The notes under the pieces are model-generated. The model was not told where the DNA came from. It did not search any database and saw only the letters and a list, made by a program, of their open reading frames with translations. This document shows positions 1-64,000 of a stretch of DNA of 64,000 nucleotides, one piece after another. Positions within the stretch are counted from its first letter, which is position 1. The number at the start of each line of letters is the position of its first letter. The stretch is from the NCBI GenBank assembly GCA_951799425.1, contig OX637402.1, forward strand, positions 1,984,501 through 2,048,500, given 5' to 3'. The translations under genes and the position numbers were made by a program. This DNA is from Ilex aquifolium (taxonomy: Eukaryota > Streptophyta > Magnoliopsida > Aquifoliales > Aquifoliaceae).

Positions 1-1449
1 AAAAGTGTAAATATGTAGATATATGTAGTGACATAAGAATAAACCGTAGGAATAAATGCTATGGAGACAATTTGATTGGGAAGTTACGTGTCGAAGATGT
101 TTAAACTTGGAAAGGGTGATTAGACAAGTTTCTAAAAGTTTGTAGGTCAAAATAATGATTCCATTGAATCCGGAAGGTCGAAAAACATTGGGAGTGGTAA
201 TATGGATGTATTGGAAGTTAGGAAGTGTCTCGGAGTTAAAATACACTTTAACGAGAATTTGGGTAAAAATGGGTATTGAACACTACTTAGTGTTTTGGCC
301 ATAACTTTTTATCTTTAAGTCCAATTGATCTGAAATTTTTACAGTAGAGAGTAGACATCTAGGGCTACAAAAGTATGTCTCATGAACATTTTCCAATTCG
401 ACCTCTAAATGAGTCAAAACTGCATTGGAAGTTGAAACAAAAATCTGGCAGTCAAACCATACCGGTACGCCGAACTCCAGTAGCTAAACCGTACCGGTAC
501 GCCCGATAAAGCCAGCCCGATCCGACTGCGGGTCTTTCTCCATTTCCTCCACTATAAATACATTTTTTCACCTCCTTAGCCTTCATTACACCACTCCAAA
601 CCCTAGAAAACATAAGAGAGGAAGAGAGAAAGAGAGAAAACAAGAGATTGAAGGGTTGATTCAAGATCAAAGCCCTAATTTTTCCAAGAACATCAAGGTA
701 GGGGTTTTCTCTCACTCACTTACATTGAGTCTAGGGTATTTATATATGTATGTTTTTGCTATCAATGGTATATATATGCTATAGAATCATCATCTCTTAG
801 GCTTTTTGCAAAGATTACATTGTTAGGGTTTAATACCCATTAAATCTCTTTTCTAGCTTTAAAACCCTAGTTTTTGGGAGAGTGATGTATTTCTTCTTAA
901 ATGCTTCTTTATTATGAACTTCGAAAACCATAGTTGTTTGTGTGGGGTAGAAAAATGATGTTATTGTGATCTCATGTATTTTCCTTGTTGGTTGGGGAAT
1001 TGTTACATAATATATCTTGGGGATTTTGGAGAGATGCGTGTAAAATGATATAAATATTGGAACGGTATGCTTGGTTGGGTTGTTTGTGATGCCTTGAGGG
1101 TGAGAGGTTCCTTATAAGGATGCTCATGCCAAGAGAGGAGAGTATGTGATTTCCCTCAAGAGGTTCCTTATAAGGATGCTTGAGTTTGTGATGCCTTGAG
1201 GGTGAGAGGTTCCTTATAAGGATGTTCATGCCAAGAGAGGAGAGTATGTGATTTTCCTTAAGAAGTTCCTTATAAGGATGCTTAAGAAACTAAGCCTTGA
1301 GGGTGAGAGGTTCCTTATAAGGATGCTCATGCCAAAAGAGGATAGTATGTAATTTTCCTCAAGAGGTTCCTTATAAGGATGCTTGAGTAACCAAGCCTTG
1401 AGGGTGAGAGGTTCCTTATAAGGATGCTCATGCCAAAAGAGGACAATAT
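1..1449 (+). repeat. Monomer M0 (left partial, S class)
   Basis: The copy lacks its first 59 bases because the window starts inside it. The LTR-like part ends at 1007. Tags: AACGAG; TGAGTC; first CpG palindrome altered to CATACC; CTTCTT; spacer TTGTTTG. Confidence 0.95.
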
Positions 1450-1486
1450 TGTAACACCCCGAATTTTCTTTTATATATTTATAGAG

Positions 1487-1501
1487 ATATATATATATAT
1501 A
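1487..1501. repeat. AT dinucleotide microsatellite near the monomer start (reference copy)
   Basis: A pure alternating AT run lies about 37 bases into every monomer. It is two bases shorter in M10, M11, M28, M32, M35, M40 and M41, two bases longer in M20, M37 and M38, and differently bordered in M17 and M18. The short alleles travel with the substitution tag ACCCTAGG about 60 bases downstream, so the tract length is inherited with haplotype and does not vary freely. Confidence 0.9.
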
Positions 1502-1965
1502 GTAAATAAAAAGTGTAAATATGTAGATATATGTAGTGACATAAGAATAAACCGTAGGAATAAATGCTATGGAGACAATTTGATTGGGAAGTTACGTGTC
1601 GAAGATGTTTAAACTTGGAAAGGGTGATTAGACAAGTTTCTAAAAGTTTGTAGGTCAAAATAATGATTCCATTGAATCCGGAAGGTCGAAAAACATTGGG
1701 AGTGGTAATATGGATGTATTGGAAGTTAGGAAGTGTCTCGGAGTTAAAATACACTTTAACGAGAATTTGGGTAAAAATGGGTATTGAACACTACTTAGTG
1801 TTTTGGCCATAAATTTTTATCTTTAAGTCCAATTGATCTGAAATTTTTACAGTAGAGAGTAGACATCTAGGGCTACAAAAGTATGTCTCATGAACATTTT
1901 CCAATTCGACCTCTAAATAAATCAAAACTGCATTGGAAGTTGAAACAAAAATCTGGCAGTCAAAC

Positions 1966-2009
1966 CGTACCGGTACGCCGAACTCCAGTAGCTAAACCGT
2001 ACCGGTACG
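1966..2009. promoter_or_regulatory. Paired 12-bp palindromes in a CpG-dense block, 50 bp upstream of the TATA box (reference copy)
   Basis: The perfect palindrome CGTACCGGTACG occurs at 1966-1977 and again at 1998-2009, start-to-start spacing 32 bp (about three helical turns). The surrounding 80 bases hold about 11 CpG sites, while the other 1.4 kb of the monomer hold about a dozen in total. The position just upstream of the TATA box suggests an upstream promoter element that could bind a dimeric factor on the same DNA face; that role is inference and I recognise no named factor. Most monomers keep both copies; where one is altered the change is nearly always CG to CA or TG. Confidence 0.5.
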
Positions 2010-2060
2010 CCCGATAAAGCCAGCCCGATCCGACTGCGGGTCTTTCTCCATTTCCTCCAC

Positions 2061-2068
2061 TATAAATA
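2061..2068 (+). promoter_or_regulatory. TATA box, candidate LTR promoter (reference copy)
   Basis: The motif TATAAATA follows a pyrimidine-rich run and precedes CA-containing pyrimidine text (CCTTCATTACACC) about 25-35 bases downstream, where a plant RNA polymerase II start would be expected. No ATG occurs from here to about 2248, as in a 5' leader. The box is present in every monomer. Transcription itself is not shown by the sequence. Confidence 0.6.
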
Positions 2069-2105
2069 CATTTTGTCACCTCCTTAGCCTTCATTACACC
2101 ACTCC

Positions 2106-2114
2106 AAACCCTAG
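2106..2114 (+). promoter_or_regulatory. Telo-box 1 (AAACCCTAG), reference copy
   Basis: AAACCCTA is the plant telo-box, equal to a little over one unit of the plant telomere repeat. In plant genes it commonly lies near transcription starts and can bind Myb-type TRB and other telomere-repeat binding factors. Here it lies about 38 bases after the TATA box, next to the GA tract. Confidence 0.55.
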
Positions 2115-2122
2115 AAAACATA

Positions 2123-2155
2123 AGAGAGGAAGAGAGAAAGAGAGAAAACAAGAGA
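2123..2155 (+). promoter_or_regulatory. GA-rich leader tract with three length classes (reference copy, short class)
   Basis: A purine run of AGAGAGGAAGAGAG type lies in the putative transcribed leader. Such GA tracts resemble binding sites of plant BPC (GAGA-binding) proteins. Its 3' part defines the length classes: S has AGAAAACAAGAG, M has AGAAACACAAGAG, and L carries 17 more bases than S, including AGATCAAG. The L form contains the short direct repeats from which S and M can both be explained. L is found in M2, M4, M6, M9, M16, M17, M23, M25-M31, M33, M34, M36 and M39. M is found only in M3, M5, M7, M10-M12, M14 and M15. S is found in the rest. Confidence 0.7.
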
Positions 2156-2205
2156 TTGAAGGGTTGATTCAAGATCAAAGCCCTAATTTTTCCAAGAACA
2201 TCAAG

Positions 2206-2211
2206 GTAGGG
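2206..2211 (+). other. Possible splice donor AAG/GTAGGG after the leader (reference copy)
   Basis: The leader text ends with CATCAAG followed by GTAGGGG and a T/C-rich stretch, a plausible plant 5' splice site about 140 bases after the TATA box. Leader introns occur in some plant transcripts. No acceptor can be chosen with confidence, so this is weak. Confidence 0.2.
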
Positions 2212-2331
2212 GTTTTCTCTCACTCACTTACATTGAGTCTAGGGTATTTATATATGTATGTTTTTGCTATCAATGGTATATATATGCTATAGAATCATCA
2301 TCTCTTAGGCTTTTTGCAAAGATTACATTGT

Positions 2332-2340
2332 TAGGGTTTA
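2332..2340 (-). promoter_or_regulatory. Telo-box 2, inverse orientation (TAGGGTTTA), reference copy
   Basis: The reverse complement of TAAACCCTA lies about 220 bases after telo-box 1 in the putative U5 part. It is kept in the monomers I inspected. Confidence 0.5.
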
Positions 2341-2369
2341 ATACCCATTAAATCTCTTTTCTAGCTTTA

Positions 2370-2378
2370 AAACCCTAG
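2370..2378 (+). promoter_or_regulatory. Telo-box 3 (AAACCCTAG), reference copy
   Basis: A third telo-box, 30 bases after telo-box 2 and opposite in orientation to it, gives each monomer three telo-box motifs. M23 differs at this site by one base outside the core. Confidence 0.5.
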
Positions 2379-2662
2379 TTTTTGGGAGAGTGATGTATTT
2401 CTTCTTAAATGCTTCTTTATTATGAACTTCGAAAACCATAGTTGTTTGTGTGGGGTAGAAAAATGATGTTATTGTGATCTCATGTATTTTCCTTGTTGGT
2501 TGGGGAATTGTTACATAATATATCTTGGGGATTTTGGAGAGATGCGTGTAAAATGATATAAATATTGGAACGGTATGCTTGGTTGGGTTGTTTGTGATGC
2601 CTTGAGGGTGAGAGGTTCCTTATAAGGATGCTCATGCCAAGAGAGGAGAGTATGTGATTTCC

Positions 2663-2692
2663 CTCAAGAGGTTCCTTATAAGGATGCTTGAG
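2663..2692. repeat. 30-bp imperfect palindrome 1 in the minisatellite (reference copy)
   Basis: The outer arms CTCAAG and CTTGAG are inverse complements and flank a central 12-bp perfect palindrome TCCTTATAAGGA, with short unmatched bases between. It could extrude as a hairpin or fold in RNA. Confidence 0.7.
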
Positions 2693-2764
2693 TTTGTGAT
2701 GCCTTGAGGGTGAGAGGTTCCTTATAAGGATGTTCATGCCAAGAGAGGAGAGTATGTGATTTTC

Positions 2765-2794
2765 CTTAAGAAGTTCCTTATAAGGATGCTTAAG
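2765..2794. repeat. 30-bp imperfect palindrome 2, covarying arms (reference copy)
   Basis: The layout matches palindrome 1, but both arms read CTTAAG, so one base pair has changed from C-G to T-A on both sides at once and pairing is kept. A base just inside the left arm (AAG or AGG) varies between monomers. Confidence 0.7.
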
Positions 2795-2865
2795 AAACTA
2801 AGCCTTGAGGGTGAGAGGTTCCTTATAAGGATGCTCATGCCAAAAGAGGATAGTATGTAATTTTC

Positions 2866-2895
2866 CTCAAGAGGTTCCTTATAAGGATGCTTGAG
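2866..2895. repeat. 30-bp imperfect palindrome 3 in the minisatellite (reference copy)
   Basis: The arms are CTCAAG and CTTGAG around TCCTTATAAGGA, as in palindrome 1. Confidence 0.7.
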
Positions 2896-2957
2896 TAACC
2901 AAGCCTTGAGGGTGAGAGGTTCCTTATAAGGATGCTCATGCCAAAAGAGGACAATAT

Positions 2958-4482
2958 TGTAACACCCCGAATTTTCTTTTATATATTTATAGAGATATAT
3001 ATATATATAGTAAATAAAAAGTGTAAATATGTAGATATATGTAGTGACATAAGAAAAAACCGTAGGAATAAATGCTATGGAGACAATTTGATTGGGAAGT
3101 TACGTGTCGAAGATGTTTAAACTTGGAAAGGGTGATTAGACAAGTTTCTAAAAGTTTGTAGGTCAAAATAATGATTCCATTGAATCCGGAAGGTCGAAAA
3201 ACATTGGGAGTGGTAATATGGATGTATTGGAAGTTAGGAAGTGTCTCGGAGTTAAAATACACTTTAACGAGAATTTGGGTAAAAATGGGTATTGAACACT
3301 ACTTAGTGTTTTGGCCATAACTTTTTATCTTTAAATCCAATTGATCTGAAATTTTTACAGTAGAGAGTAGACATCTAGGGCTACAAAAGTATGTCTCATG
3401 AACATTTTCCAATTCGACCTCTAAATAAATCAAAACTGCATTGGAAGTTGAAACAAAAATCTGGCAGTCAAACCGTACCGGTACGCCGAACTCCAGTAGC
3501 TAAACCGTACCGGTACGCCCGATAAAGCCAGCCCGATCCGACTGCGGGTCTTTCTCCATTTCCTCCACTATAAATACATTTTTTCACCTCCTTAGCCTTC
3601 ATTACACCACTCCAAACCCTAGAAAACATAAGAGAGGAAGAGAGAAAGAGAGAAACACAAGATCAAGAGAAAACAAGAGATTGAAGGGTTGATTCAAGAT
3701 CAAAGCCCTAATTTTTCCAAGAACATCAAGGTAGGGGTTTTCTCTCACTCACTTACATTGAGTCTAGGGTATTTATATATGTATGTTTTTGCTATCAATG
3801 GTATATATATGCTATAGAATCATCATCTCTTAGGCTTTTTGCAAAGATTACATTGTTAGGGTTTAATACCCATTAAATCTCTTTTCTAGCTTTAAAACCC
3901 TAGTTTTTGGGAGAGTGATGTATTTCTTTTTAAATGCTTCTTTATTATGAACTTCGAAAACCATAGTTGTTTGTGTGGGGTAGAAAAATGATGTTATTGT
4001 GATCTCATGTATTTTCCTTGTTGGTTGGGGAATTGTTACATAATATATCTTGGGGATTTTGGAGAGATGCGTGTAAAATGATATAAATATTGGAACGGTA
4101 TGCTTGGTTGGGTTTTTTGTGATGCCTTGAGGGTGAGAGGTTCCTTATAAGGATGCTCATGCCAAGAGAGGAGAGTATGTGATTTCCCTCAAGAGGTTCC
4201 TTATAAGGATGCTTGAGTTTGTGATGCCTTGAGGGTGAGAGGTTCCTTATAAGGATGTTCATGCCAAGAGAGGAGAGTATGTGATTTTCCTTAAGAAGTT
4301 CCTTATAAGGATGCTTAAGAAACTAAGCCTTGAGGGTGAGAGGTTCCTTATAAGGATGCTCATGCCAAAAGAGGATAGTATGTAATTTTCCTCAAGAGGT
4401 TCCTTATAAGGATGCTTGAGTAACCAAGCCTTGAGGGTGAGAGGTTCCTTATAAGGATGCTCATGCCAAAAGAGGACAATAT
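2958..4482 (+). repeat. Monomer M2 (L class, 1525 bp)
   Basis: The LTR-like part ends at 4040. Tags: AACGAG, GAGAGTAG, ATAAATC, TTTCTTTTT, spacer GGGTTTTTTG. This is the first half of the first dimer of the 3034-bp higher-order repeat. Confidence 0.97.
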
Positions 4483-5991
4483 TGTAACACCCCGAATTTT
4501 CTTTTATATATTTATAGAGATATATATATATATAGTAAATAAAAAGTGTAAATATGTAGATATATGTAGTGACATAAGAATAAACCGTAGGAATAAATGC
4601 TATGGAGACAATTTGATTGGGAAGTTACGTGTCGAAGATGTTTAAACTTGGAAAGGGTGATTAGACAAGTTTCTAAAAGTTTGTAGGTCAAAATAATGAT
4701 TCCATTGAATCCGGAAGGTCGACAAACATTGGGAGTGGTAATATGGATGTATTGGAAGTTAGGAAGTGTCTCGGAGTTAAAATACACTTTAGCGAGAATT
4801 TGGGTAAAAATGGGTATTGAACACTACTTAGTGTTTTGGCCATAACTTTTTATCTTTAAGTCCAATTGATCTGAAATTTTTACAGTAGATAGTAGACATC
4901 TAGGGCTACAAAAGTATGTCTCATGAACATTTTCCAATTCGACCTCTAAATGAGTCAAAACTGCATTGGAAGTTGAAACAAAAATCTGGCAGTCAAACCG
5001 TACCGGTACGCCGAACTCCAGTAGCTAAACCGTACCGGTACGCCCGATAAAGCCAGCCCGATCCGACTGCGGGTCTTTCTCCATTTCCTCCACTATAAAT
5101 ACATTTTTTCACCTCCTTAGCCTTCATTACACCACTCCAAACCCTAGAAAACATAAGAGAGGAAGAGAGAAAGAGAGAAACACAAGAGATTGAAGGGTTG
5201 ATTCAAGATCAAAGCCCTAATTTTTCCAAGAACATCAAGGTAGGGGTTTTCTCTCACTCACTTACATTGAGTCTAGGGTATTTATATATGTATGTTTTTG
5301 CTATCAATGGTATATATATGCTATAGAATCATCATCTCTTAGGCTTTTTGCAAAGATTACATTGTTAGGGTTTAATACCCATTAAATCTCTTTTCTAGCT
5401 TTAAAACCCTAGTTTTTGGGAGAGTGATGTATTTCTTCTTAAATGCTTCTTTATTATGAACTTCGAAAACCATAGTTGTTTGTGTGGGGTAGAAAAATGA
5501 TGTTATTGTGATCTCATGTATTTTCCTTGTTGGTTGGGGAATTGTTACATAATATATCTTGGGGATTTTGGAGAGATGCGTGTAAAATGATATAAATATT
5601 GGAACGGTATGCTTGGTTGGGTTGTTTGTGATGCCTTGAGGGTGAGAGGTTCCTTATAAGGATGCTCATGCCAAGAGAGGAGAGTATGTGATTTCCCTCA
5701 AGAGGTTCCTTATAAGGATGCTTGAGTTTGTGATGCCTTGAGGGTGAGAGGTTCCTTATAAGGATGTTCATGCCAAGAGAGGAGAGTATGTGATTTTCCT
5801 TAAGAAGTTCCTTATAAGGATGCTTAAGAAACTAAGCCTTGAGGGTGAGAGGTTCCTTATAAGGATGCTCATGCCAAAAGAGGATAGTATGTAATTTTCC
5901 TCAAGAGGTTCCTTATAAGGATGCTTGAGTAACCAAGCCTTGAGGGTGAGAGGTTCCTTATAAGGATGCTCATGCCAAAAGAGGACAATAT
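4483..5991 (+). repeat. Monomer M3 (M class, 1509 bp)
   Basis: The LTR-like part ends at 5549. Tags: GACAAACATT, AGCGAG, GATAGTAG, TGAGTC, CTTCTT, GTTGTTTG. This is the second half of the first dimer. Confidence 0.97.
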
Positions 5992-7516
5992 TGTAACACC
6001 CCGAATTTTCTTTTATATATTTATAGAGATATATATATATATAGTAAATAAAAAGTGTAAATATGTAGATATATGTAGTGACATAAGAATAAACCGTAGG
6101 AATAAATGCTATGGAGACAATTTGATTGGGAAGTTACGTGTCGAAGATGTTTAAACTTGGAAAGGGTGATTAGACAAGTTTCTAAAAGTTTGTAGGTCAA
6201 AATAATGATTCCATTGAATCCGGAAGGTCGAAAAACATTGGGAGTGGTAATATGGATGTATTGGAAGTTAGGAAGTGTCTCGGAGTTAAAATACACTTTA
6301 ACGAGAATTTGGGTAAAAATGGGTATTGAACACTACTTAGTGTTTTGGCCATAACTTTTTATCTTTAAGTCCAATTGATCTGAAATTTTTACAGTAGAGA
6401 GTAGACATCTAGGGCTACAAAAGTATGTCTCCTGAACATTTTCCAATTCCACCTCTAAATAAATCAAAACTGCATTGGAAGTTGAAACAAAAATCTGGCA
6501 GTCAAACCGTACCGGTACGCCGAACTCCAGTAGCTAAACCGTACCGGTACGCCCGATAAAGCCAGCCCGATCCGACTGCGGGTCTTTCTCCATTTCCTCC
6601 ACTATAAATACATTTTTTCACCTCCTTAGCCTTCATTACACCACTCCAAACCCTAGAAAACATAAGAGAGGAAGAGAGAAAGAGAGAAACACAAGATCAA
6701 GAGAAAACAAGAGATTGAAGGGTTGATTCAAGATCAAAGCCCTAATTTTTCCAAGAACATCAAGGTAGGGGTTTTCTCTCACTCACTTACATTGAGTCTA
6801 GGGTATTTATATATGTATGTTTTTGCTATCAATGGTATATATATGCTATAGAATCATCATCTCTTAGGCTTTTTGCAAAGATTACATTGTTAGGGTTTAA
6901 TACCCATTAAATCTCTTTTCTAGCTTTAAAACCCTAGTTTTTGGGAGAGTGATGTATTTCTTTTTAAATGCTTCTTTATTATGAACTTCGAAAACCATAG
7001 TTGTTTGTGTGGGGTAGAAAAATGATGTTATTGTGATCTCATGTATTTTCCTTGTTGGTTGGGGAATTGTTACATAATATATCTTGGGGATTTTGGAGAG
7101 ATGCGTGTAAAATGATATAAATATTGGAACGGTATGCTTGGTTGGGTTTTTTGTGATGCCTTGAGGGTGAGAGGTTCCTTATAAGGATGCTCATGCCAAG
7201 AGAGGAGAGTATGTGATTTCCCTCAAGAGGTTCCTTATAAGGATGCTTGAGTTTGTGATGCCTTGAGGGTGAGAGGTTCCTTATAAGGATGTTCATGCCA
7301 AGAGAGGAGAGTATGTGATTTTCCTTAAGAAGTTCCTTATAAGGATGCTTAAGAAACTAAGCCTTGAGGGTGAGAGGTTCCTTATAAGGATGCTCATGCC
7401 AAAAGAGGATAGTATGTAATTTTCCTCAAGAGGTTCCTTATAAGGATGCTTGAGTAACCAAGCCTTGAGGGTGAGAGGTTCCTTATAAGGATGCTCATGC
7501 CAAAAGAGGACAATAT
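5992..7516 (+). repeat. Monomer M4 (L class, 1525 bp)
   Basis: The LTR-like part ends at 7074. It has the M2 haplotype with the added tag ATTCCACC, and opens the second dimer. Confidence 0.97.
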
Positions 7517-9025
7517 TGTAACACCCCGAATTTTCTTTTATATATTTATAGAGATATATATATATATAGTAAATAAAAAGTGTAAATATGTAGATATATG
7601 TAGTGACATAAGAATAAACCGTAGGAATAAATGCTATGGAGACAATTTGATTGGGAAGTTACGTGTCGAAGATGTTTAAACTTGGAAAGGGTGATTAGAC
7701 AAGTTTCTAAAAGTTTGTAGGTCAAAATAATGATTCCATTGAATCCGGAAGGTCGACAAACATTGGGAGTGGTAATATGGATGTATTGGAAGTTAGGAAG
7801 TGTCTCGGAGTTAAAATACACTTTAGCGAGAATTTGGGTAAAAATGGGTATTGAACACTACTTAGTGTTTTGGCCATAACTTTTTATCTTTAAGTCCAAT
7901 TGATCTGAAATTTTTACAGTAGATAGTAGACATCTAGGGCTACAAAAGTATGTCTCATGAACATTTTCCAATTCGACCTCTAAATGAGTCAAAACTGCAT
8001 TGGAAGTTGAAACAAAAATCTGGCAGTCAAACCGTACCGGTACGCCGAACTCCAGTAGCTAAACCGTACCGGTACGCCCGATAAAGCCAGCCCGATCCGA
8101 CTGCGGGTCTTTCTCCATTTCCTCCACTATAAATACATTTTTTCACCTCCTTAGCCTTCATTACACCACTCCAAACCCTAGAAAACATAAGAGAGGAAGA
8201 GAGAAAGAGAGAAACACAAGAGATTGAAGGGTTGATTCAAGATCAAAGCCCTAATTTTTCCAAGAACATCAAGGTAGGGGTTTTCTCTCACTCACTTACA
8301 TTGAGTCTAGGGTATTTATATATGTATGTTTTTGCTATCAATGGTATATATATGCTATAGAATCATCATCTCTTAGGCTTTTTGCAAAGATTACATTGTT
8401 AGGGTTTAATACCCATTAAATCTCTTTTCTAGCTTTAAAACCCTAGTTTTTGGGAGAGTGATGTATTTCTTCTTAAATGCTTCTTTATTATGAACTTCGA
8501 AAACCATAGTTGTTTGTGTGGGGTAGAAAAATGATGTTATTGTGATCTCATGTATTTTCCTTGTTGGTTGGGGAATTGTTACATAATATATCTTGGGGAT
8601 TTTGGAGAGATGCGTGTAAAATGATATAAATATTGGAACGGTATGCTTGGTTGGGTTGTTTGTGATGCCTTGAGGGTGAGAGGTTCCTTATAAGGATGCT
8701 CATGCCAAGAGAGGAGAGTATGTGATTTCCCTCAAGAGGTTCCTTATAAGGATGCTTGAGTTTGTGATGCCTTGAGGGTGAGAGGTTCCTTATAAGGATG
8801 TTCATGCCAAGAGAGGAGAGTATGTGATTTTCCTTAAGAAGTTCCTTATAAGGATGCTTAAGAAACTAAGCCTTGAGGGTGAGAGGTTCCTTATAAGGAT
8901 GCTCATGCCAAAAGAGGATAGTATGTAATTTTCCTCAAGAGGTTCCTTATAAGGATGCTTGAGTAACCAAGCCTTGAGGGTGAGAGGTTCCTTATAAGGA
9001 TGCTCATGCCAAAAGAGGACAATAT
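7517..9025 (+). repeat. Monomer M5 (M class, 1509 bp)
   Basis: The LTR-like part ends at 8583. I see the same tags as M3 throughout, exactly 3034 bp downstream of it. Confidence 0.97.
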
Positions 9026-10550
9026 TGTAACACCCCGAATTTTCTTTTATATATTTATAGAGATATATATATATATAGTAAATAAAAAGTGTAAATATGT
9101 AGATATATGTAGTGACATAAGAATAAACCGTAGGAATAAATGCTATGGAGACAATTTGATTGGGAAGTTACGTGTCGAAGATGTTTAAACTTGGAAAGGG
9201 TGATTAGACAAGTTTCTAAAAGTTTGTAGGTCAAAATAATGATTCCATTGAATCCGGAAGGTCGAAAAACATTGGGAGTGGTAATATGGATGTATTGGAA
9301 GTTAGGAAGTGTCTCGGAGTTAAAATACACTTTAACGAGAATTTGGGTAAAAATGGGTATTGAACACTACTTAGTGTTTTGGCCATAACTTTTTATCTTT
9401 AAGTCCAATTGATCTGAAATTTTTACAGTAGAGAGTAGACATCTAGGGCTACAAAAGTATGTCTCATGAACATTTTCCAATTCCACCTCTAAATAAATCA
9501 AAACTGCATTGGAAGTTGAAACAAAAATCTGGCAGTCAAACCGTACCGGTACGCCGAACTCCAGTAGCTAAACCGTACCGGTACGCCCGATAAAGCCAGC
9601 CCGATCCGACTGCGGGTCTTTCTCCATTTCCTCCACTATAAATACATTTTTTCACCTCCTTAGCCTTCATTACACCACTCCAAACCCTAGAAAACATAAG
9701 AGAGGAAGAGAGAAAGAGAGAAACACAAGATCAAGAGAAAACAAGAGATTGAAGGGTTGATTCAAGATCAAAGCCCTAATTTTTCCAAGAACATCAAGGT
9801 AGGGGTTTTCTCTCACTCACTTACATTGAGTCTAGGGTATTTATATATGTATGTTTTTGCTATCAATGGTATATATATGCTATAGAATCATCATCTCTTA
9901 GGCTTTTTGCAAAGATTACATTGTTAGGGTTTAATACCCATTAAATCTCTTTTCTAGCTTTAAAACCCTAGTTTTTGGGAGAGTGATGTATTTCTTTTTA
10001 AATGCTTCTTTATTATGAACTTCGAAAACCATAGTTGTTTGTGTGGGGTAGAAAAATGATGTTATTGTGATCTCATGTATTTTCCTTGTTGGTTGGGGAA
10101 TTGTTACATAATATATCTTGGGGATTTTGGAGAGATGCGTGTAAAATGATATAAATATTGGAACGGTATGCTTGGTTGGGTTTTTTGTGATGCCTTGAGG
10201 GTGAGAGGTTCCTTATAAGGATGCTCATGCCAAGAGAGGAGAGTATGTGATTTCCCTCAAGAGGTTCCTTATAAGGATGCTTGAGTTTGTGATGCCTTGA
10301 GGGTGAGAGGTTCCTTATAAGGATGTTCATGCCAAGAGAGGAGAGTATGTGATTTTCCTTAAGAAGTTCCTTATAAGGATGCTTAAGAAACTAAGCCTTG
10401 AGGGTGAGAGGTTCCTTATAAGGATGCTCATGCCAAAAGAGGATAGTATGTAATTTTCCTCAAGAGGTTCCTTATAAGGATGCTTGAGTAACCAAGCCTT
10501 GAGGGTGAGAGGTTCCTTATAAGGATGCTCATGCCAAAAGAGGACAATAT
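9026..10550 (+). repeat. Monomer M6 (L class, 1525 bp)
   Basis: The LTR-like part ends at 10108. It has the M4 haplotype including ATTCCACC and opens the third dimer. Confidence 0.97.
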
Positions 10551-12059
10551 TGTAACACCCCGAATTTTCTTTTATATATTTATAGAGATATATATATATA
10601 TAGTAAATAAAAAGTGTAAATATGTAGATATATGTAGTGACATAAGAATAAACCGTAGGAATAAATGCTATGGAGACAATTTGATTGGGAAGTTACGTGT
10701 CGAAGATGTTTAAACTTGGAAAGGGTGATTAGACAAGTTTCTAAAAGTTTGTAGGTCAAAATAATGATTCCATTGAATCCGGAAGGTCGACAAACATTGG
10801 GAGTGGTAATATGGATGTATTGGAAGTTAGGAAGTGTCTCGGAGTTAAAATACACTTTAGCGAGAATTTGGGTAAAAATGGGTATTGAACACTACTTAGT
10901 GTTTTGGCCATAACTTTTTATCTTTAAGTCCAATTGATCTGAAATTTTTACAGTAGATAGTAGACATCTAGGGCTACAAAAGTATGTCTCATGAACATTT
11001 TCCAATTCGACCTCTAAATGAGTCAAAACTGCATTGGAAGTTGAAACAAAAATCTGGCAGTCAAACCGTACCGGTACGCCGAACTCCAGTAGCTAAACCG
11101 TACCGGTACGCCCGATAAAGCCAGCCCGATCCGACTGCGGGTCTTTCTCCATTTCCTCCACTATAAATACATTTTTTCACCTCCTTAGCCTTCATTACAC
11201 CACTCCAAACCCTAGAAAACATAAGAGAGGAAGAGAGAAAGAGAGAAACACAAGAGATTGAAGGGTTGATTCAAGATCAAAGCCCTAATTTTTCCAAGAA
11301 CATCAAGGTAGGGGTTTTCTCTCACTCACTTACATTGAGTCTAGGGTATTTATATATGTATGTTTTTGCTATCAATGGTATATATATGCTATAGAATCAT
11401 CATCTCTTAGGCTTTTTGCAAAGATTACATTGTTAGGGTTTAATACCCATTAAATCTCTTTTCTAGCTTTAAAACCCTAGTTTTTGGGAGAGTGATGTAT
11501 TTCTTCTTAAATGCTTCTTTATTATGAACTTCGAAAACCATAGTTGTTTGTGTGGGGTAGAAAAATGATGTTATTGTGATCTCATGTATTTTCCTTGTTG
11601 GTTGGGGAATTGTTACATAATATATCTTGGGGATTTTGGAGAGATGCGTGTAAAATGATATAAATATTGGAACGGTATGCTTGGTTGGGTTGTTTGTGAT
11701 GCCTTGAGGGTGAGAGGTTCCTTATAAGGATGCTCATGCCAAGAGAGGAGAGTATGTGATTTCCCTCAAGAGGTTCCTTATAAGGATGCTTGAGTTTGTG
11801 ATGCCTTGAGGGTGAGAGGTTCCTTATAAGGATGTTCATGCCAAGAGAGGAGAGTATGTGATTTTCCTTAAGAAGTTCCTTATAAGGATGCTTAAGAAAC
11901 TAAGCCTTGAGGGTGAGAGGTTCCTTATAAGGATGCTCATGCCAAAAGAGGATAGTATGTAATTTTCCTCAAGAGGTTCCTTATAAGGATGCTTGAGTAA
12001 CCAAGCCTTGAGGGTGAGAGGTTCCTTATAAGGATGCTCATGCCAAAAGAGGACAATAT
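10551..12059 (+). repeat. Monomer M7 (M class, 1509 bp)
   Basis: The LTR-like part ends at 11617. It carries the M3/M5 haplotype and closes the third dimer. Confidence 0.97.
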
Positions 12060-54488: not shown

Positions 54489-56013
54489 TGTAACACCCCG
54501 AATTTTCTTTTATATATTTATAGAGATATATATATATATAGTAAATAAAAAGTGTAAATATGTAGATATATGTAGTGACATAAGAATAAACCGTAGGAAT
54601 AAATGCTATGGAGACAATTTGATTGGGAAGTTACGTGTCGAAGATGTTTAAACTTGGAAAGGGTGATTAGACAAGTTTCTAAAAGTTTGTAGGTCAAAAT
54701 AATGATTCCATTGAATCCGGAAGGTCGAAAAACATTGGGAGTGGTAATATGGATGTATTGGAAGTTAGGAAGTGTCTCGGAGTTAAAATACACTTTAGCG
54801 AGAATTTGGGTAAAAATGGGTATTGAACACTACTTAGTGTTTTGGCCATAAATTTTTATCTTTAAGTCCAATTGATCTGAAATTTTTACAGTAGATAGTA
54901 GACATCTAGGGCTACAAAAGTATGTCTCATGAACATTTTCCAATTCGACCTCTAAATGGGTCAAAACTGCATTGGAAGTTGAAACAAAAATCTGGCAGTC
55001 AAACCGTACCGGTACGCCGAACTCCAGTAGCTAAACCGTACCGGTACACCCGATAAAGCCAGCCCGATCCGACTGCGGGTCTTTCTCCATTTCCTCCACT
55101 ATAAATACATTTTTTCACCTCCTTAGCCTTCATTACACCACTCCAAACCCTAGAAAACATAAGAGAGGAAGAGAGAAAGAGAGAAACACAAGATCAAGAG
55201 AAAACAAGAGATTGAAGGGTTGATTCAAGATCAAAGCCCTAATTTTTCCAAGAACATCAAGGTAGGGGTTTTCTCTCACTCACTTACATTGAGTCTAGGG
55301 TATTTATATATGTATGTTTTTGCTATCAATGATATATATATGCTATAGAATCATCATCTCTTAGGCTTTTTGCAAAGATTACATTGTTAGGGTTTAATAC
55401 CCATTAAATCTCTTTTCTAGCTTTAAAACCCTAGTTTTTGGGAGAGTGATGTATTTCTTTTTAAATGCTTCTTTATTATGAACTTCGAAAACCATAGTTG
55501 TTTGTGTGGGGTAGAAAAATGATGTTATTGTGATCTCATGTATTTTCCTTGTTGGTTGGGGAATTGTTACATAATATATCTTGGGGATTTTGGAGAGATG
55601 CGTGTAAAATGATATAAATATTGGAACGGTATGCTTGGTTGGGTTGTTTGTGATGCCTTGAGGGTGAGAGGTTCCTTATAAGGATGCTGATGTCAAGAGA
55701 GGAGAGTATGTGATTTCCCTCAAGAGGTTCCTTATAAGGATGCTTGAGTTTGTGATGCCTTGAGGGTGAGAGGTTCCTTATAAGGATGTTCATGCCAAGA
55801 GAGGAGAGTATGTGATTTTCCTTAAGAGGTTCCTTATAAGGATGCTTAAGAAACTAAGCCTTGAGGGTGAGAGGTTCCTTATAAGGATGCTCATGCCAAA
55901 AGAGGATAGTATGTAATTTTCCTCAAGAGGTTCCTTATAAGGATGCTTGAGTAACCAAGCCTTGAGGGTGAGAGGTTCCTTATAAGGATGCTCATGCCAA
56001 AAGAGGACAATAT
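54489..56013 (+). repeat. Monomer M36 (L class, 1525 bp)
   Basis: The LTR-like part ends at 55571. The back is as M31 (CAATGATATA, GCTGATGTCAAG), the front has TAAGTCC, and the second palindrome has a CG to CA change on its 3' side. Confidence 0.97.
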
Positions 56014-57523
56014 TGTAACACCCCGAATTTTCTTTTATATATTTATAGAGATATATATATATATATAGTAAATAAAAAGTGTAAATATGTAGATATATGT
56101 AGTGACATAAGAATAAACCGTAGGAATAAATGCTATGGAGACAATTTGATTGGGAAGTTACGTGTCGAAGATGTTTAAACTTGGAAAGGGTGATTAGACA
56201 AGTTTCTAAAAGTTTGTAGGTCAAAATAATGATTCCATTGAATCCGGAAGGTCGAAAAACATTGGGAGTGGTAATATGGATGTATTGGAAGTTAGGAAGT
56301 GTCTCGGAGTTAAAATACACTTTAGCGAGAATTTGGGTAAAAATGGGTATTGAACACTACTTAGTGTTTTGGCCATAAATTTTTATCTTTAAGTCCAATT
56401 GATCTGAAATTTTTACAGTAGATAGTAGACATCTAGGGCTACAAAAGTATGTCTCATGAACATTTTCCAATTCGACCTCTAAATGGGTCAAAACTGCATT
56501 GGAAGTTGAAACAAAAATCTGGCAGTCAAACCGTACCGGTACGCCGAACTCCAGTAGCTAAACCGTACCGGTACGCCCGATAAAGCCAGCCCGATCCGAC
56601 TGCGGGTCTTTCTCCATTTCCTCCACTATAAATACATTTTTTCACCTCCTTAGCCTTCATTACACCACTCCAAACCCTAGAAAACATAAGAGAGGAAGAG
56701 AGAAAGAGAGAAAACAAGAGATTGAAGGGTTGATTCAAGATCAAAGCCCTAATTTTTCCAAGAACATCAAGGTAGGGGTTTTCTCTCACTCACTTACATT
56801 GAGTCTAGGGTATTTATATATGTATGTTTTTGCTATCAATGGTATATATATGCTATAGAATCATCATCTCTTAGGCTTTTTGCAAAGATTACATTGTTAG
56901 GGTTTAATACCCATTAAATCTCTTTTCTAGCTTTAAAACCCTAGTTTTTGGGAGAGTGATGTATTTCTTCTTAAATGCTTCTTTATTATGAACTTCGAAA
57001 ACCATAGTTGTTTGTGTGGGGTAGAAAAATGATGTTATTGTGATCTCATGTATTTTCCTTGTTGGTTGGGGAATTGTTACATAATATATCTTGGGGATTT
57101 TGGAGAGATGCGTGTAAAATGATATAAATATTGGAACGGTATGCTTGGTTGGGTTGTTTGTGATGCCTTGAGGGTGAGAGGTTCCTTATAAGGATGCTCA
57201 TGCCAAGAGAGGAGAGTATGTGATTTCCCTCAAGAGGTTCCTTATAAGGATGCTTGATTTTGTGATGCCTTGAGGGTGAGAGGTTCCTTATAAGGATGTT
57301 CATGCCAAGAGAGAAGAGTATGTGATTTTCCTTAAGATGTTCCTTATAAAGATGCTTAAGAAACTAAGCCTTGAGGGTGAGAGGTTCCTTATAAGGATGC
57401 TCATGCCAAAAGAGGATAGTATGTAATTTTCCTCAAGAGGTTCCTTATAAGGATGCTTGAGTAACCAAGCCTTGAGGGTGAGAGGTTCCTTATAAGGATG
57501 CTCATGCCAAAAGAGGACAATAT
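56014..57523 (+). repeat. Monomer M37 (S class, 1510 bp, long AT tract)
   Basis: The LTR-like part ends at 57081. Tags: TAAGTCC, CTTGATTTTG, and private changes in the second hairpin region (AAGATGTTCC). Confidence 0.97.
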
Positions 57524-59033
57524 TGTAACACCCCGAATTTTCTTTTATATATTTATAGAGATATATATATATATATAGTAAATAAAAAGTGTAAATATGT
57601 AGATATATGTAGTGACATAAGAATAAACCGTAGGAATAAATGCTATGGAGACAATTTGATTGGGAAGTTACGTGTCGAAGATGTTTAAACTTGGAAAGGG
57701 TGATTAGACAAGTTTCTAAAAGTTTGTAGGTCAAAATAATGATTCCATTGAATCCGGAAGGTCGAAAAACATTGGGAGTGGTAATATGGATGTATTGGAA
57801 GTTAGGAAGTGTCTCGGAGTTAAAATACACTTTAGCGAGAATTTGGGTAAAAATGGGTATTGAACACTACTTAGTGTTTTGGCCATAAATTTTTATCTTT
57901 AATTCCAATTGATCTGAAATTTTTACAGTAGATAGTAGACATCTAGGGCTACAAAAGTATGTCTCATGAACATTTTCCAATTCGACCTCTAAATGGGTCA
58001 AAACTGCATTGGAAGTTGAAACAAAAATCTGGCAGTCAAACCGTACCGGTACGCCGAACTCCAGTAGCTAAACCGTACCGGTACGCCCGATAAAGCCAGC
58101 CCGATCCGACTGCGGGTCTTTCTCCATTTCCTCCACTATAAATACATTTTTTCACCTCCTTAGCCTTCATTACACCACTCCAAACCCTAGAAAACATAAG
58201 AGAGGAAGAGAGAAAGAGAGAAAACAAGAGATTGAAGGGTTGATTCAAGATCAAAGCCCTAATTTTTCCAAGAACATCAAGGTAGGGGTTTTCTCTCACT
58301 CACTTACATTGAGTCTAGGGTATTTATATATGTATGTTTTTGCTATCAATGGTATATATATGCTATAGAATCATCATCTCTTAGGCTTTTTGCAAAGATT
58401 ACATTGTTAGGGTTTAATACCCATTAAATCTCTTTTCTAGCTTTAAAACCCTAGTTTTTGGGAGAGTGATGTATTTCTTCTTAAATGCTTCTTTATTATG
58501 AACTTCGAAAACCATAGTTGTTTGTGTGGGGTAGAAAAATGATGTTATTGTGATCTCATGTATTTTCCTTGTTGGTTGGGGAATTGTTACATAATATATC
58601 TTGGGGATTTTGGAGAGATGCGTGTAAAATGATATAAATATTGGAACGGTATGCTTGGTTGGGTTGTTTGTGATGCCTTGAGGGTGAGAGGTTCCTTATA
58701 AGGATGCTCATGCCAAGAGAGGAGAGTATGTGATTTCCCTCAAGAGGTTCCTTATAAGGATGCTTGATTTTGTGATGCCTTGAGGGTGAGAGGTTCCTTA
58801 TAAGGATGTTCATGCCAAGAGAGGAGAGTATGTGATTTTCCTTAAGAAGTTCCTTATAAGGATGCTTAAGAAACTAAGCCTTGAGGGTGAGAGGTTCCTT
58901 ATAAGGATGCTCATGCCAAAAGAGGATAGTATGTAATTTTCCTCAAGAGGTTCCTTATAAGGATGCTTGAGTAACCAAGCCTTGAGGGTGAGAGGTTCCT
59001 TATAAGGATGCTCATGCCAAAAGAGGACAATAT
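57524..59033 (+). repeat. Monomer M38 (S class, 1510 bp, long AT tract), triplet position 1
   Basis: The LTR-like part ends at 58591. It has the M37 front with TTTAATTCC and CTTGATTTTG, and opens the fourth triplet in short-class form. Confidence 0.96.
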
Positions 59034-60558
59034 TGTAACACCCCGAATTTTCTTTTATATATTTATAGAGATATATATATATATAGTAAATAAAAAGTGT
59101 AAATATGTAGATATATGTAGTGACATAAGAATAAACCGTAGGAATAAATGCTATGGAGACAATTTGATTGGGAAGTTACGTGTCGAAGATGTTTAAACTT
59201 GGAAAGGGTGATTAGACAAGTTTCTAAAAGTTTGTAGGTCAAAATAATGATTCCATTGAATCCGGAAGGTCGAAAAACATTGGGAGTGGTAATATGGATG
59301 TATTGGAAGTTAGGAAGTGTCTCGGAGTTAAAATACACTTTAGCGAGAATTTGGGTAAAAATGGGTATTGAACACTACTTAGTGTTTTGGCCATAAATTT
59401 TTATCTTTAATTCCAATTGATCTGAAATTTTTACAGTAGATAGTAGACATCTAGGGCTACAAAAGTATGTCTCATGAACATTTTCCAATTCGACCTCTAA
59501 ATGGGTCAAAACTGCATTGGAAGTTGAAACAAAAATCTGGCAGTCAAACCGTACCGGTACGCCGAACTCCAGTAGCTAAACCGTACCGGTACGCCCGATA
59601 AAGCCAGCCCGATCCGACTGCGGGTCTTTCTCCATTTCCTCCACTATAAATACATTTTGTCACCTCCTTAGCCTTCATTACACCACTCCAAACCCTAGAA
59701 AACATAAGAGAGGAAGAGAGAAAGAGAGAAACACAAGATCAAGAGAAAACAAGAGATTGAAGGGTTGATTCAAGATCAAAGCCCTAATTTTTCCAAGAAC
59801 ATCAAGGTAGGGGTTTTCTCTCACTCACTTACATTGAGTCTAGGGTATTTATATATGTATGTTTTTGCTATCAATGATATATATATGCTATAGAATCATC
59901 ATCTCTTAGGCTTTTTGCAAAGATTACATTGTTAGGGTTTAATACCCATTAAATCTCTTTTCTAGCTTTAAAACCCTAGTTTTTGGGAGAGTGATGTATT
60001 TCTTTTTAAATGCTTCTTTATTATGAACTTCGAAAACCATAGTTGTTTGTGTGGGGTAGAAAAATGATGTTATTGTGATCTCATGTATTTTCCTTGTTGG
60101 TTGGGGAATTGTTACATAATATATCTTGGGGATTTTGGAGAGATGCGTGTAAAATGATATAAATATTGGAACGGTATGCTTGGTTGGGTTGTTTGTGATG
60201 CCTTGAGGGTGAGAGGTTCCTTATAAGGATGCTCATGTCAAGAGAGGAGAGTATGTGATTTCCCTCAAGAGGTTCCTTATAAGGATGCTTGAGTTTGTGA
60301 TGCCTTGAGGGTGAGAGGTTCCTTATAAGGATGTTCATGCCAAGAGAGGAGAGTATGTGATTTTCCTTAAGAGGTTCCTTATAAGGATGCTTAAGAAACT
60401 AAGCCTTGAGGGTGAGAGGTTCCTTATAAGGATGCTCATGCCAAAAGAGGATAGTATGTAATTTTCCTCAAGAGGTTCCTTATAAGGATGCTTGAGTAAC
60501 CAAGCCTTGAGGGTGAGAGGTTCCTTATAAGGATGCTCATGCCAAAAGAGGACAATAT
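59034..60558 (+). repeat. Monomer M39 (L class, 1525 bp), triplet position 2
   Basis: The LTR-like part ends at 60116. It has the same tags as M27 and M34. Confidence 0.97.
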
Positions 60559-62064
60559 TGTAACACCCCGAATTTTCTTTTATATATTTATAGAGATATA
60601 TATATATAGTAAATAAAAAGTGTAAATATGTAGATATATGTAGTGACATAAGAATAAACCCTAGGAATAAATGCTATGGAGACAATTTGATTGGGAAGTT
60701 ACGTGTCGAAGATGTTTAAACTTGTAAAGGGTGATTAGACAAGTTTCTAAAAGTTTGTAGGTCAAAATAATGATTCCATTGAATCCGGAAGGTCGAAAAA
60801 CATTGGGAGTGGTAATATGGATGTATTGGAAGTTAGGAAGTGTCTCGGAGTTAAAATAAACTTTAGCGAGAATTTGGGTAAAAATGGGTATTGAACACTA
60901 CTTAGTGTTTTGGCCATAACTTTTTATCTTTAAGTCCAATGGATCTGAAATTTTTACAGTAGATAGTAGACATCTAGGGCTACAAAAGTATGTCTCATGA
61001 ACATTTTCCAATTCGACCTCTAAATGGGTCAAAACTGCATTGGAAGTTGAAACAAAAATCTGGCAGTCAAACCGTACCGGTACGCCGAACTCCAGTAGCT
61101 AAACCGTACCGGTACGCCCGATAAAGCCAGCCCGATCCGACTGCGGGTCTTTCTCCATTTCCTCCACTATAAATACATTTTTTCACCTCCTTAGCCTTCA
61201 TTACACCACTCCAAACCCTAGAAAACATAAGAGAGGAAGAGAGAAAGAGAGAAAACAAGAGATTGAAGGGTTGATTCAAGATCAAAGCCCTAATTTTTCC
61301 AAGAACATCAAGGTAGGGGTTTTCTCTCACTCACTTACATTGAGTCTAGGGTATTTATATATGTATGTTTTTGCTATCAATGGTATATATATGCTATAGA
61401 ATCATCATCTCTTAGGCTTTTTGCAAAGATTACATTGTTAGGGTTTAATACCCATTAAATCTCTTTTCTAGCTTTAAAACCCTAGTTTTTGGGAGAGTGA
61501 TGTATTTCTTTTTAAATGCTTCTTTATTATGAACTTCGAAAACCATAGTTGTTTGTGTGGGGTAGAAAAATGATGTTATTGTGATCTCATGTATTTTCCT
61601 TGTTGGTTGGGGAATTGTTACATAATATATCTTGGGGATTTTGGAGAGATGCGTGTAAAATGATATAAATATTGGAACGGTATGCTTGGTTGGGTTGTTT
61701 GTGATGCCTTGAGGGTGAGAGGTTCCTTATAAGGATGCTCATGTCAAGAGAGGAGAGTATGTGATTTCCCTCAAGAGGTTCCTTATAAGGATGCTTGAGT
61801 TTGTGATGCCTTGAGGGTGAGAGGTTCCTTATAAGGATGTTCATGCCAAGAGAGGAGAGTATGTGATTTTCCTTAAGAGGTTCCTTATAAGGATGCTTAA
61901 GAAACTAAGCCTTGAGGGTGAGAGGTTCCTTATAAGGATGCTCATGCCAAAAGAGGATAGTATGTAATTTTCCTCAAGAGGTTCCTTATAAGGATGCTTG
62001 AGTAACCAAGCCTTGAGGGTGAGAGGTTCCTTATAAGGATGCTCATGCCAAAAGAGGACAATAT
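60559..62064 (+). repeat. Monomer M40 (S class, 1506 bp), triplet position 3
   Basis: The LTR-like part ends at 61622. Tags: short AT tract, AAATAAAC, CCAATGGATC (shared only with M41), TTTCTTTTT, ATGTCAAG. Confidence 0.97.
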
Positions 62065-63570
62065 TGTAACACCCCGAATTTTCTTTTATATATTTATAGA
62101 GATATATATATATAGTAAATAAAAAGTGTAAATATGTAGATATATGTAGTGACATAAGAATAAACCCTAGGAATAAATGCTATGGAGACAATTTGATTGG
62201 GAAGTTACGTGTCGAAGATGTTTAAACTTGTAAAGGGTGATTAGACAAGTTTCTAAAAGTTTGTAGGTCAAAATAATGATTCCATTGAATCCGGAAGGTC
62301 GAAAAACATTGGGAGTGGTAATATGGATGTATTGGAAGTTAGGAAGTGTCTCGGAGTTAAAATAAACTTTAGCGAGAATTTGGGTAAAAATGGGTATTGA
62401 ACACTACTTAGTGTTTTGGCCATAACTTTTTATCTTTAAGTCCAATGGATCTGAAATTTTTACAGTAGATAGTAGACATCTAGGGCTACAAAAGTATGTC
62501 TCATGAACATTTTCCAATTCGACCTCTAAATGGGTCAAAACTGCATTGGAAGTTGAAACAAAAATCTGGCAGTCAAACCGTACCGGTACGCCGAACTCCA
62601 GTAGCTAAACCGTACCGGTACGCCCGATAAAGCCAGCCCGATCCGACTGCGGGTCTTTCTCCATTTCCTCCACTATAAATACATTTTTTCACCTCCTTAG
62701 CCTTCATTACACCACTCCAAACCCTAGAAAACATAAGAGAGGAAGAGAGAAAGAGAGAAAACAAGAGATTGAAGGGTTGATTCAAGATCAAAGCCCTAAT
62801 TTTTCCAAGAACATCAAGGTAGGGGTTTTCTCTCACTCACTTACATTGAGTCTAGGGTATTTATATATGTATGTTTTTGCTATCAATGGTATATATATGC
62901 TATAGAATCATCATCTCTTAGGCTTTTTGCAAAGATTACATTGTTAGGGTTTAATACCCATTAAATCTCTTTTCTAGCTTTAAAACCCTAGTTTTTGGGA
63001 GAGTGATGTATTTCTTCTTAAATGCTTCTTTATTATGAACTTCGAAAACCATAGTTGTTTGTGTGGGGTAGAAAAATGATGTTATTGTGATCTCATGTAT
63101 TTTCCTTGTTGGTTGGGGAATTGTTACATAATATATCTTGGGGATTTTGGAGAGATGCGTGTAAAATGATATAAATATTGGAACGGTATGCTTGGTTGGG
63201 TTGTTTGTGATGCCTTGAGGGTGAGAGGTTCCTTATAAGGATGCTCATGCCAAGAGAGGAGAGTATGTGATTTCCCTCAAGAGGTTCCTTATAAGGATGC
63301 TTGAGTTTGTGATGCCTTGAGGGTGAGAGGTTCCTTATAAGGATGTTCATGCCAAGAGAGGAGAGTATGTGATTTTCCTTAAGAAGTTCCTTATAAGGAT
63401 GCTTAAGAAACTAAGCCTTGAGGGTGAGAGGTTCCTTATAAGGATGCTCATGCCAAAAGAGGATAGTATGTAATTTTCCTCAAGAGGTTCCTTATAAGGA
63501 TGCTTGAGTAACCAAGCCTTGAGGGTGAGAGGTTCCTTATAAGGATGCTCATGCCAAAAGAGGACAATAT
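62065..63570 (+). repeat. Monomer M41 (S class, 1506 bp)
   Basis: The LTR-like part ends at 63128. The front is as M40, including CCAATGGATC. The back is ordinary S class (CTTCTT, ATGCCAAG). Confidence 0.97.
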
Positions 63571-64000
63571 TGTAACACCCCGAATTTTCTTTTATATATT
63601 TATAGAGATATATATATATATAGTAAATAAAAAGTGTAAATATGTAGATATATGTAGTGACATAAGAATAAACCGTAGGAATAAATGCTATGGAGACAAT
63701 TTGATTGGGAAGTTACGTGTCGAAGATGTTTAAACTTGGAAAGGGTGATTAGACAAGTTTCTAAAAGTTTGTAGGTCAAAATAATGATTCCATTGAATCC
63801 GGAAGGTCGAAAAACATTGGGAGTGGTAATATGGATGTATTGGAAGTTAGGAAGTGTCTCGGAGTTAAAATACACTTTAGCGAGAATTTGGGTAAAAATG
63901 GGTATTGAACACTACTTAGTGTTTTGGCCATAAATTTTTATCTTTAAGTCCAATTGATCTGAAATTTTTACAGTAGATAGTAGACATCTAGGGCTACAAA
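63571..64000 (+). repeat. Monomer M42 (right partial, 430 bp)
   Basis: The copy is cut by the window end before the CpG block. Tags: ordinary AT tract, ACCGTAGG, ATAAATTTT, GATAGTAG. Confidence 0.95.

What the first reader, a model, noticed from the sequence alone, without database searches (positions are those of the whole stretch)
1..64000. A pure LTR-derived macrosatellite of about 1.5 kb monomers fills the window
Seen: 42 starts of TGTAACACCCC, one orientation, no unique sequence. Known: plant Ty3/gypsy LTRs typically begin TGTAACACCC and end TGTTACA, and plant satellites can arise from retrotransposon LTR or UTR sequence. Inference: an LTR plus a short spacer was captured and amplified as a satellite unit far longer than the usual 150-400 bp.
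Basis: partly seen in the sequence, partly recalled or inferred. Interest (0 to 1): 0.75.

Follow-up and report, generated by a model that had tools for sequence, protein, structure and literature searches.

The report
Young LTR-derived long-monomer plant satellite
The whole window is one very uniform tandem array of a 1.5-kb non-coding unit that seems to carry the start and promoter of a plant retrotransposon repeat, a known way for long plant satellites to arise, so it is a probable new example of a known kind.

Summary
In detail: 42 exact starts, 41 complete monomers of 1506-1525 bp and two partial ones, all in one orientation, covering 64,000 of 64,000 bases. Monomers differ by 0.64% on average, and blocks up to seven units apart are repeated exactly over up to 4.4 kb, so the array is young and locally homogenised. 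TGTAACACCC is the commonest U3 attachment site of Del/Tekay LTRs in sorghum and maize, and a TATA box and purine-rich leader follow, as in an LTR. The proposed 3' boundary (TGTTACA, a 1066-bp LTR) is not supported: the Del U5 attachment triplet is absent, no initiator-Met primer site follows, no polypurine tract abuts the LTR start, and TGTTACA arises in 163 of 2000 shuffles. The unit is better described as LTR start, promoter and leader fused to 3.5 copies of a 101-bp subrepeat. The source genome and plant LTR libraries were out of reach, so neither host nor parent element was identified. Published parallels are maize CRM4TR (LTR-UTR monomer, ~1386 nt) and potato Sobo (4.7 kb). Probable new member of a known kind; low interest.

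The parts
1..64000 (+). Uninterrupted head-to-tail array: 41 complete monomers of 1506-1525 bp plus a partial monomer at each end; no array boundary inside the window
1450..2957 (+). Example monomer (first complete one, 1508 bp, phased on TGTAACACCCC)
1450..1459 (+). TGTAACACCC, identical to the commonest Del/Tekay U3 attachment site of sorghum and maize (LTR 5' end)
2060..2068 (+). TATA box CTATAAATA, about 610 bp into the LTR-like part; present in 41 of 41 monomers
   Evidence: 34 of 2000 shuffles contain it by chance
2122..2148 (+). GAGA-rich leader (27-nt purine run) downstream of the TATA box; the ~17-bp insertion that separates long (18) and short (23) monomers lies at its end
2509..2515 (+).
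2516..2589 (+). 74-bp linker between TGTTACA and the subrepeats; no initiator-Met primer-binding site
2590..2957 (+). 3.5 copies of a 101-bp subrepeat, with 7 CCTTATAAGG palindromes in this monomer (7 in 39 of 41 monomers, 6 in the other two); abuts the next TGTAACACCCC directly

Best explanation
The window lies inside a long, young plant satellite array whose 1.5-kb unit derives from a Ty3/gypsy (probably Del/Tekay-type chromovirus) LTR region. The unit holds the LTR 5' end, U3, TATA box and leader, joined to a tract of 101-bp subrepeats that came from the same element's distal LTR or UTR. Proposed history: (1) the 101-bp subrepeats expanded first, inside the progenitor (inferred: copies within a monomer differ by 2-12% depending on the stretch, the same stretch across monomers by 0.6%; later homogenisation between monomers could also lower the second figure). 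(2) A deletion or recombination joined the subrepeat tract to an LTR start, giving a direct repeat (inferred). (3) Unequal exchange and gene conversion multiplied the unit and homogenise it locally (the pattern is shown: distance-dependent similarity, multi-monomer exact duplications, mosaic haplotypes; the process is inferred). (4) The array sits in methylated heterochromatin and has no coding role, though each unit keeps an LTR-type promoter that could be transcribed (inferred).
For: The TGTAACACCC start equals the commonest Del U3 att; 81.3% (maize) and 78.2% (sorghum) of att hits were tied to a Del LTR (PMC4029996 passages). None of 2000 shuffles contained it. The order U3 start - TATA - purine leader is present in 41 of 41 monomers. 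No Rfam match at E of 1 or better (first 12.5 of 64 kb), no tRNA in the window, no Pfam match at its curated cut-off in 8 ORFs (8 of the 24 listed for 1-4483, chosen to cover about one unit). Mean pairwise difference is 9.6 substitutions per monomer, gaps excluded. Distance grows with separation (Mantel r 0.27, reached in 1 of 5000 permutations). A dimer pattern appears in monomers 1-8 (lag 2, p 0.0015; best of 7 lags in a block chosen by eye, uncorrected), exact repeats reach 4392 bp at 7 monomers' distance, and pairs of sites showing all four gametes rise from 3 of 40 within 50 bp to 37-41% beyond 400 bp. Within the consensus, the first three subrepeat copies match at 86-89 of 93 positions and four 55-bp cores at 51-54 of 55. 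C>T plus G>A make up 26 of 61 variants at gap-free sites against 3 for the reverse transitions, polarised by the majority base, as expected from deamination of methylated cytosine.
Against: No plant sequence could be compared, so the parent LTR, and the plant origin itself, are inferred. TGTAACACCC is not exclusive to Del: a Linum Cassandra LTR primer contains it, as the reverse complement of the LTR end (PMC4163409 passage). The U5 att, primer-binding site and polypurine tract of a chromovirus were all looked for and not found. The TATA box and TGTTACA arise by chance in 34 and 163 of 2000 shuffles.
Confidence: 0.75

Rival explanations
1. A narrower form of the best explanation: the whole monomer is a shortened LTR (U3, R and a U5 carrying 101-bp subrepeats) with the U5 end lost, so that truncated LTRs lie end to end and there is no separate spacer.
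For: Eudicot Del LTR subgroup means are 1190-3737 bp (PMC4029996 Table 1), so 1066 bp would be short and 1.5 kb ordinary. The subrepeat tract abuts the next TGTAACACCC without a polypurine tract. Diversity is similar in most segments (0.0034-0.0078, apart from the 74-bp linker at 0.0007).
Against: TGTTACA sits where an LTR end could be. CpG is absent from the subrepeat tract while positions 1-610 keep it, which could mean two origins; but CpG is also absent from positions 611-800, so this is weak.
Confidence: 0.35
2. One reading: a complete 1066-bp LTR (TGTAACACCC...TGTTACA) plus a 442-bp spacer was captured and amplified.
For: TGTAACA and TGTTACA form a 7-bp terminal inverted repeat; TGTTACA is present in 41 of 41 monomers.
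Against: No Del U5 att triplet, no initiator-Met primer site, no polypurine tract before the LTR start; TGTTACA is found in 163 of 2000 shuffles. The five bases before TG (AATAT) and after TGTTACA (TAATA) are not an identical target-site duplication, though AATAT recurs one base further on.
Confidence: 0.3
3. A long-monomer satellite unrelated to retrotransposons that contains the LTR-like motifs by coincidence.
For: No parent element is known, since none could be searched for; no coding remnant was recognised.
Against: TGTAACACCC appeared in 0 of 2000 shuffles, and it precedes a TATA box and leader in the right order.
Confidence: 0.12
4. Assembly artefact: a short array stretched into a long one.
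For: Tandem arrays are hard to assemble, and 9 monomer pairs are fully identical.
Against: Monomers carry 33 informative and 25 singleton gap-free sites in varied mosaic combinations, and the array changes in character along its length.
Confidence: 0.04

Closest known systems
CRM4TR and CRM1TR of maize (Sharma et al. 2013, PMC3648361; abstract, passages and one section seen)
   Same: Tandem arrays made of an LTR-UTR segment of a Ty3/gypsy chromovirus. CRM4TR has 39 full-length monomers of 1369-1391 nt that include the TATA box and carry short tandem repeats near the 3' end; CRM1TR has ~100-nt internal repeats; the authors propose deletions followed by gene conversion.
   Different: CRM elements, not Del/Tekay; the CRM monomers start inside the LTR, not at its 5' end; parent elements known.
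Sobo of wild potato (Tek et al. 2005; seen only as cited in PMC3648361 and PMC12628747)
   Same: Long, recently amplified satellite monomer with LTR similarity (Sore1 gypsy element), in a pericentromere.
   Different: 4.7-kb monomer that also resembles another satellite and other genomic DNA.
Ogre 3'UTR-derived satellites of Lathyrus sativus (Vondrak et al. 2019, PMC7004042; abstract and two sections seen)
   Same: Retrotransposon-borne short tandem repeats feed satellite arrays.
   Different: There the subrepeat itself becomes the satellite; here the whole 1.5-kb unit containing it does.
Cassandra tandem arrays (PMC7215508; abstract and discussion seen)
   Same: Alternating LTR and short internal domain in tandem.
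   Different: Discussion reports up to 12 repeats per array (abstract: at least 12), and the LTRs carry 5S sequence; no Rfam match of any kind in the 12.5 kb searched here.

Membership tests
Satellite DNA (long-monomer plant satellite) | Long contiguous head-to-tail array of near-identical units | tested here: met
   64,000 of 64,000 bases, 41 complete monomers, mean difference 0.64%
Satellite DNA (long-monomer plant satellite) | Non-coding unit | tested here: met
   No Pfam match at its cut-off in 8 of 24 listed ORFs, no Rfam match in 12.5 of 64 kb, no tRNA in the window
Del/Tekay LTR retrotransposon LTR | U3 attachment site TGTAACACCC at the LTR 5' end | tested here: met
   Sequence present once per unit, 42 times; consensus given in PMC4029996. 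That it is an LTR end here is inferred, since units were phased on it
Del/Tekay LTR retrotransposon LTR | U5 attachment site with GGG (type A) or TTC (type B) at -10 to -8 | tested here: not met
   Monomer has AAT before TGTTACA; no site in the unit matches GGGTGTTACA with fewer than 3 mismatches
Del/Tekay LTR retrotransposon LTR | Initiator-Met primer-binding site just after the LTR | tested here: not met
   Best match 4 mismatches; 493 of 500 mononucleotide shuffles reach 4 or fewer; motif recalled, placement from PMC3605345
Del/Tekay LTR retrotransposon LTR | Polypurine tract directly upstream of the LTR | tested here: not met
   The 8 bases before TG are GACAATAT; the nearest purine run AAAAGAGGA ends 6 bases away
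Del/Tekay LTR retrotransposon LTR | Homology to dispersed full elements with chromodomain integrase | not testable with these tools
   No genome held for the window
LTR-UTR tandem repeat (CRM4TR type) | Monomer shown to match an LTR-UTR junction of a known element | not testable with these tools
   No plant element library; only architecture compared

The most novel reading that the evidence does not exclude
A large part of a chromosome region, possibly a centromere, in this plant has been rebuilt from head-to-tail truncated Del/Tekay LTRs, each keeping a TATA promoter and a run of CCTTATAAGG palindromes (usually seven), so that the array is a dense field of same-direction retrotransposon promoters which is transcribed and used for centromere or silencing function.
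Probability: 0.1. Interest if true: 0.5.

Novelty: new member of a known kind. Interest (0 to 1): 0.22.

Why it matters
It gives a clean, young case in which the steps by which a retrotransposon's promoter region turns into a long satellite may be read: subrepeats first, then fusion to an LTR start, then multi-monomer duplications. If confirmed it adds a Del/Tekay-type source to the LTR-UTR satellites published for CRM elements. It does not change the general picture.

Tried and rejected
Searching the source genome failed because none is held. Exact LTR-start (18-mer) and subrepeat (21-mer) patterns in viral contigs gave 0 stretches each. Distant BLAST of one monomer in plasmids and phages gave no match. 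These are mostly microbial collections, so their silence says little. A 20-mer LTR-start pattern in genome contigs gave one hit, L001 (7118 of a 15,118-base contig labelled a halobacterial MAG): a 23-bp match at the LTR start (BLAST E 6e-5 against that locus alone; the other listed matches are of 27 bp or less with E 0.11 or more), and none of its five ORFs of 120 aa or more looked like a retrotransposon protein (read by eye, not scanned). By my own arithmetic about 0.5 chance hits are expected, so I reject it as chance. RNA-gene origin was rejected (12.5 of 64 kb searched, about 8 monomers). A solo-LTR insertion into a minisatellite was considered: the flanking pentamers AATAT and TAATA do not make an exact target-site duplication. 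Subrepeat hairpins fold only modestly better than shuffles (z -1.6 to -2.6), and one of four 100-nt control stretches reaches -2.4, so no structural function is claimed. In print: 9 of 10 paper searches used. No title listed there names this satellite, but some lists were capped, sequence similarity cannot be searched and most subscription journals are missing, so I make no claim that it is unpublished.
Full report
Observation. TGTAACACCCC occurs 42 times, all on the + strand and none on the - strand. The 41 complete units between them measure 1506-1525 bp. Hits of the monomer consensus (43 of at least 300 bp, none on the minus strand, lowest identity 97.97%) cover all 64,000 bases. The array therefore fills the window with neither edge visible. 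Two size classes exist, 18 long and 23 short, differing by an insertion of about 17 bp in the leader.

Anatomy of a unit (consensus coordinates; add 1449 for the first complete unit). Position 1: TGTAACACCC. Positions 611-619: CTATAAATA. Positions 673-699: a 27-nt purine run. Positions 1060-1066: TGTTACA. Positions 1067-1140: linker. Positions 1141-1508: 3.5 copies of a 101-bp subrepeat that run directly into the next TGTAACACCCC. CCTTATAAGG occurs 292 times in the window against 0.19 expected, seven per unit in 39 of 41 units and six in two. The TATA box, leader stretch and TGTTACA are present in 41 of 41 units.

Is it an LTR? The start is the exact 10-mer that Cruz et al. (PMC4029996, abstract, passages and one section seen) call the most common Del U3 attachment site in sorghum and maize, with 81.3% and 78.2% of maize and sorghum hits tied to a Del LTR. 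None of 2000 shuffles contained it. The promoter order fits an LTR. The 10-mer is not exclusive: a Linum Cassandra LTR primer carries it, as the reverse complement of the LTR end (PMC4163409, one passage). No plant sequence collection was available, so homology to a real element, and the plant origin itself, are untested.

The proposed LTR end is not supported. Del U5 sites carry GGG (type A) or TTC (type B) at -10 to -8; here the bases are AAT. This test counts only if the element is Del. No initiator-Met primer site is found: best 4 mismatches, which 493 of 500 mononucleotide shuffles reach or beat (motif recalled). No polypurine tract touches the LTR start, though beet chromoviruses have both in fixed places (PMC3605345 passages). 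TGTTACA occurs in 163 of 2000 shuffles. Eudicot Del LTR subgroup means are 1190-3737 bp, so the LTR part may well run on into the subrepeats. I therefore keep the LTR origin but drop the 1066-bp boundary.

History. Within the consensus unit the first three subrepeat copies match at 86-89 of 93 positions, and four 55-bp cores at 51-54 of 55; over the 102-nt register identity falls to 88%. Units differ by only 0.64%. The subrepeats thus look older than the array, although homogenisation between units could also produce this. Similarity falls with distance (Mantel r 0.27; 1 of 5000 permutations as high). In three blocks chosen by eye, with lags 1-7 tested and not corrected, there is a dimer pattern in units 1-8 (lag 2, p 0.0015), near-neighbour similarity in units 9-25 (lag 1, 0 of 2000), and only a weak trimer tendency in units 26-41 (lag 3, p 0.07, not significant). 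Nine unit pairs are fully identical, exact repeats reach 4392 bp seven units apart, and pairs of sites with all four gametes rise with distance from 3 of 40 (up to 50 bp) to 37 of 90 (400-700 bp) and stay at 37-38% beyond. This is the pattern of unequal exchange plus gene conversion. C>T and G>A outnumber the reverse 26 to 3 among 61 variants at gap-free sites, polarised only by the majority base, which fits cytosine methylation. With a recalled LTR substitution rate of about 1.3e-8 per site per year, 0.64% would mean roughly a quarter of a million years; homogenisation makes this a minimum age.

No function was found. No Rfam match in the first 12.5 kb, no tRNA, no Pfam match at its cut-off in 8 of 24 listed ORFs. 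Subrepeat folding is modest and not clearly above control stretches.

Comparison. The nearest published case I saw is CRM4TR of maize: 39 full monomers of 1369-1391 nt from an LTR-UTR segment, with internal repeats near the 3' end, in a paper that proposes deletions followed by gene conversion. Potato Sobo, Ogre-derived Lathyrus satellites and Cassandra arrays are further relatives in kind. Plant centromeric monomers of 979-5390 bp (potato) and about 1.2 kb (Allium) are on record (PMC7644871 passages). The finding is thus a probable new member of a known kind; the host and parent element remain to be found.

Noticed in passing
unit positions 1141-1508, e.g. window 2590-2957: The 101-bp subrepeat contains two CCTTATAAGG palindromes, which resemble a CArG box (MADS-type site; recalled, from no call).
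   Followed up: partly
window 1949-2011: Two copies of a ~31-bp segment (81% alike), 32 bp apart, each holding the 12-bp palindrome CGTACCGGTACG, about 50 bp upstream of the TATA box; possible U3 regulatory repeat.
   Followed up: no
window 1450-12059 (monomers 1-7): Short and long units alternate as a dimeric higher-order repeat, giving way to other patterns further on.
   Followed up: yes
window 1950-2249 (unit positions 501-800): CpG is rich at unit positions 501-610 (observed/expected 1.35) and absent at 611-800 and in the subrepeats; diversity at 611-800 (0.0034) is about half that of 1-610 (0.0078).
   Followed up: no
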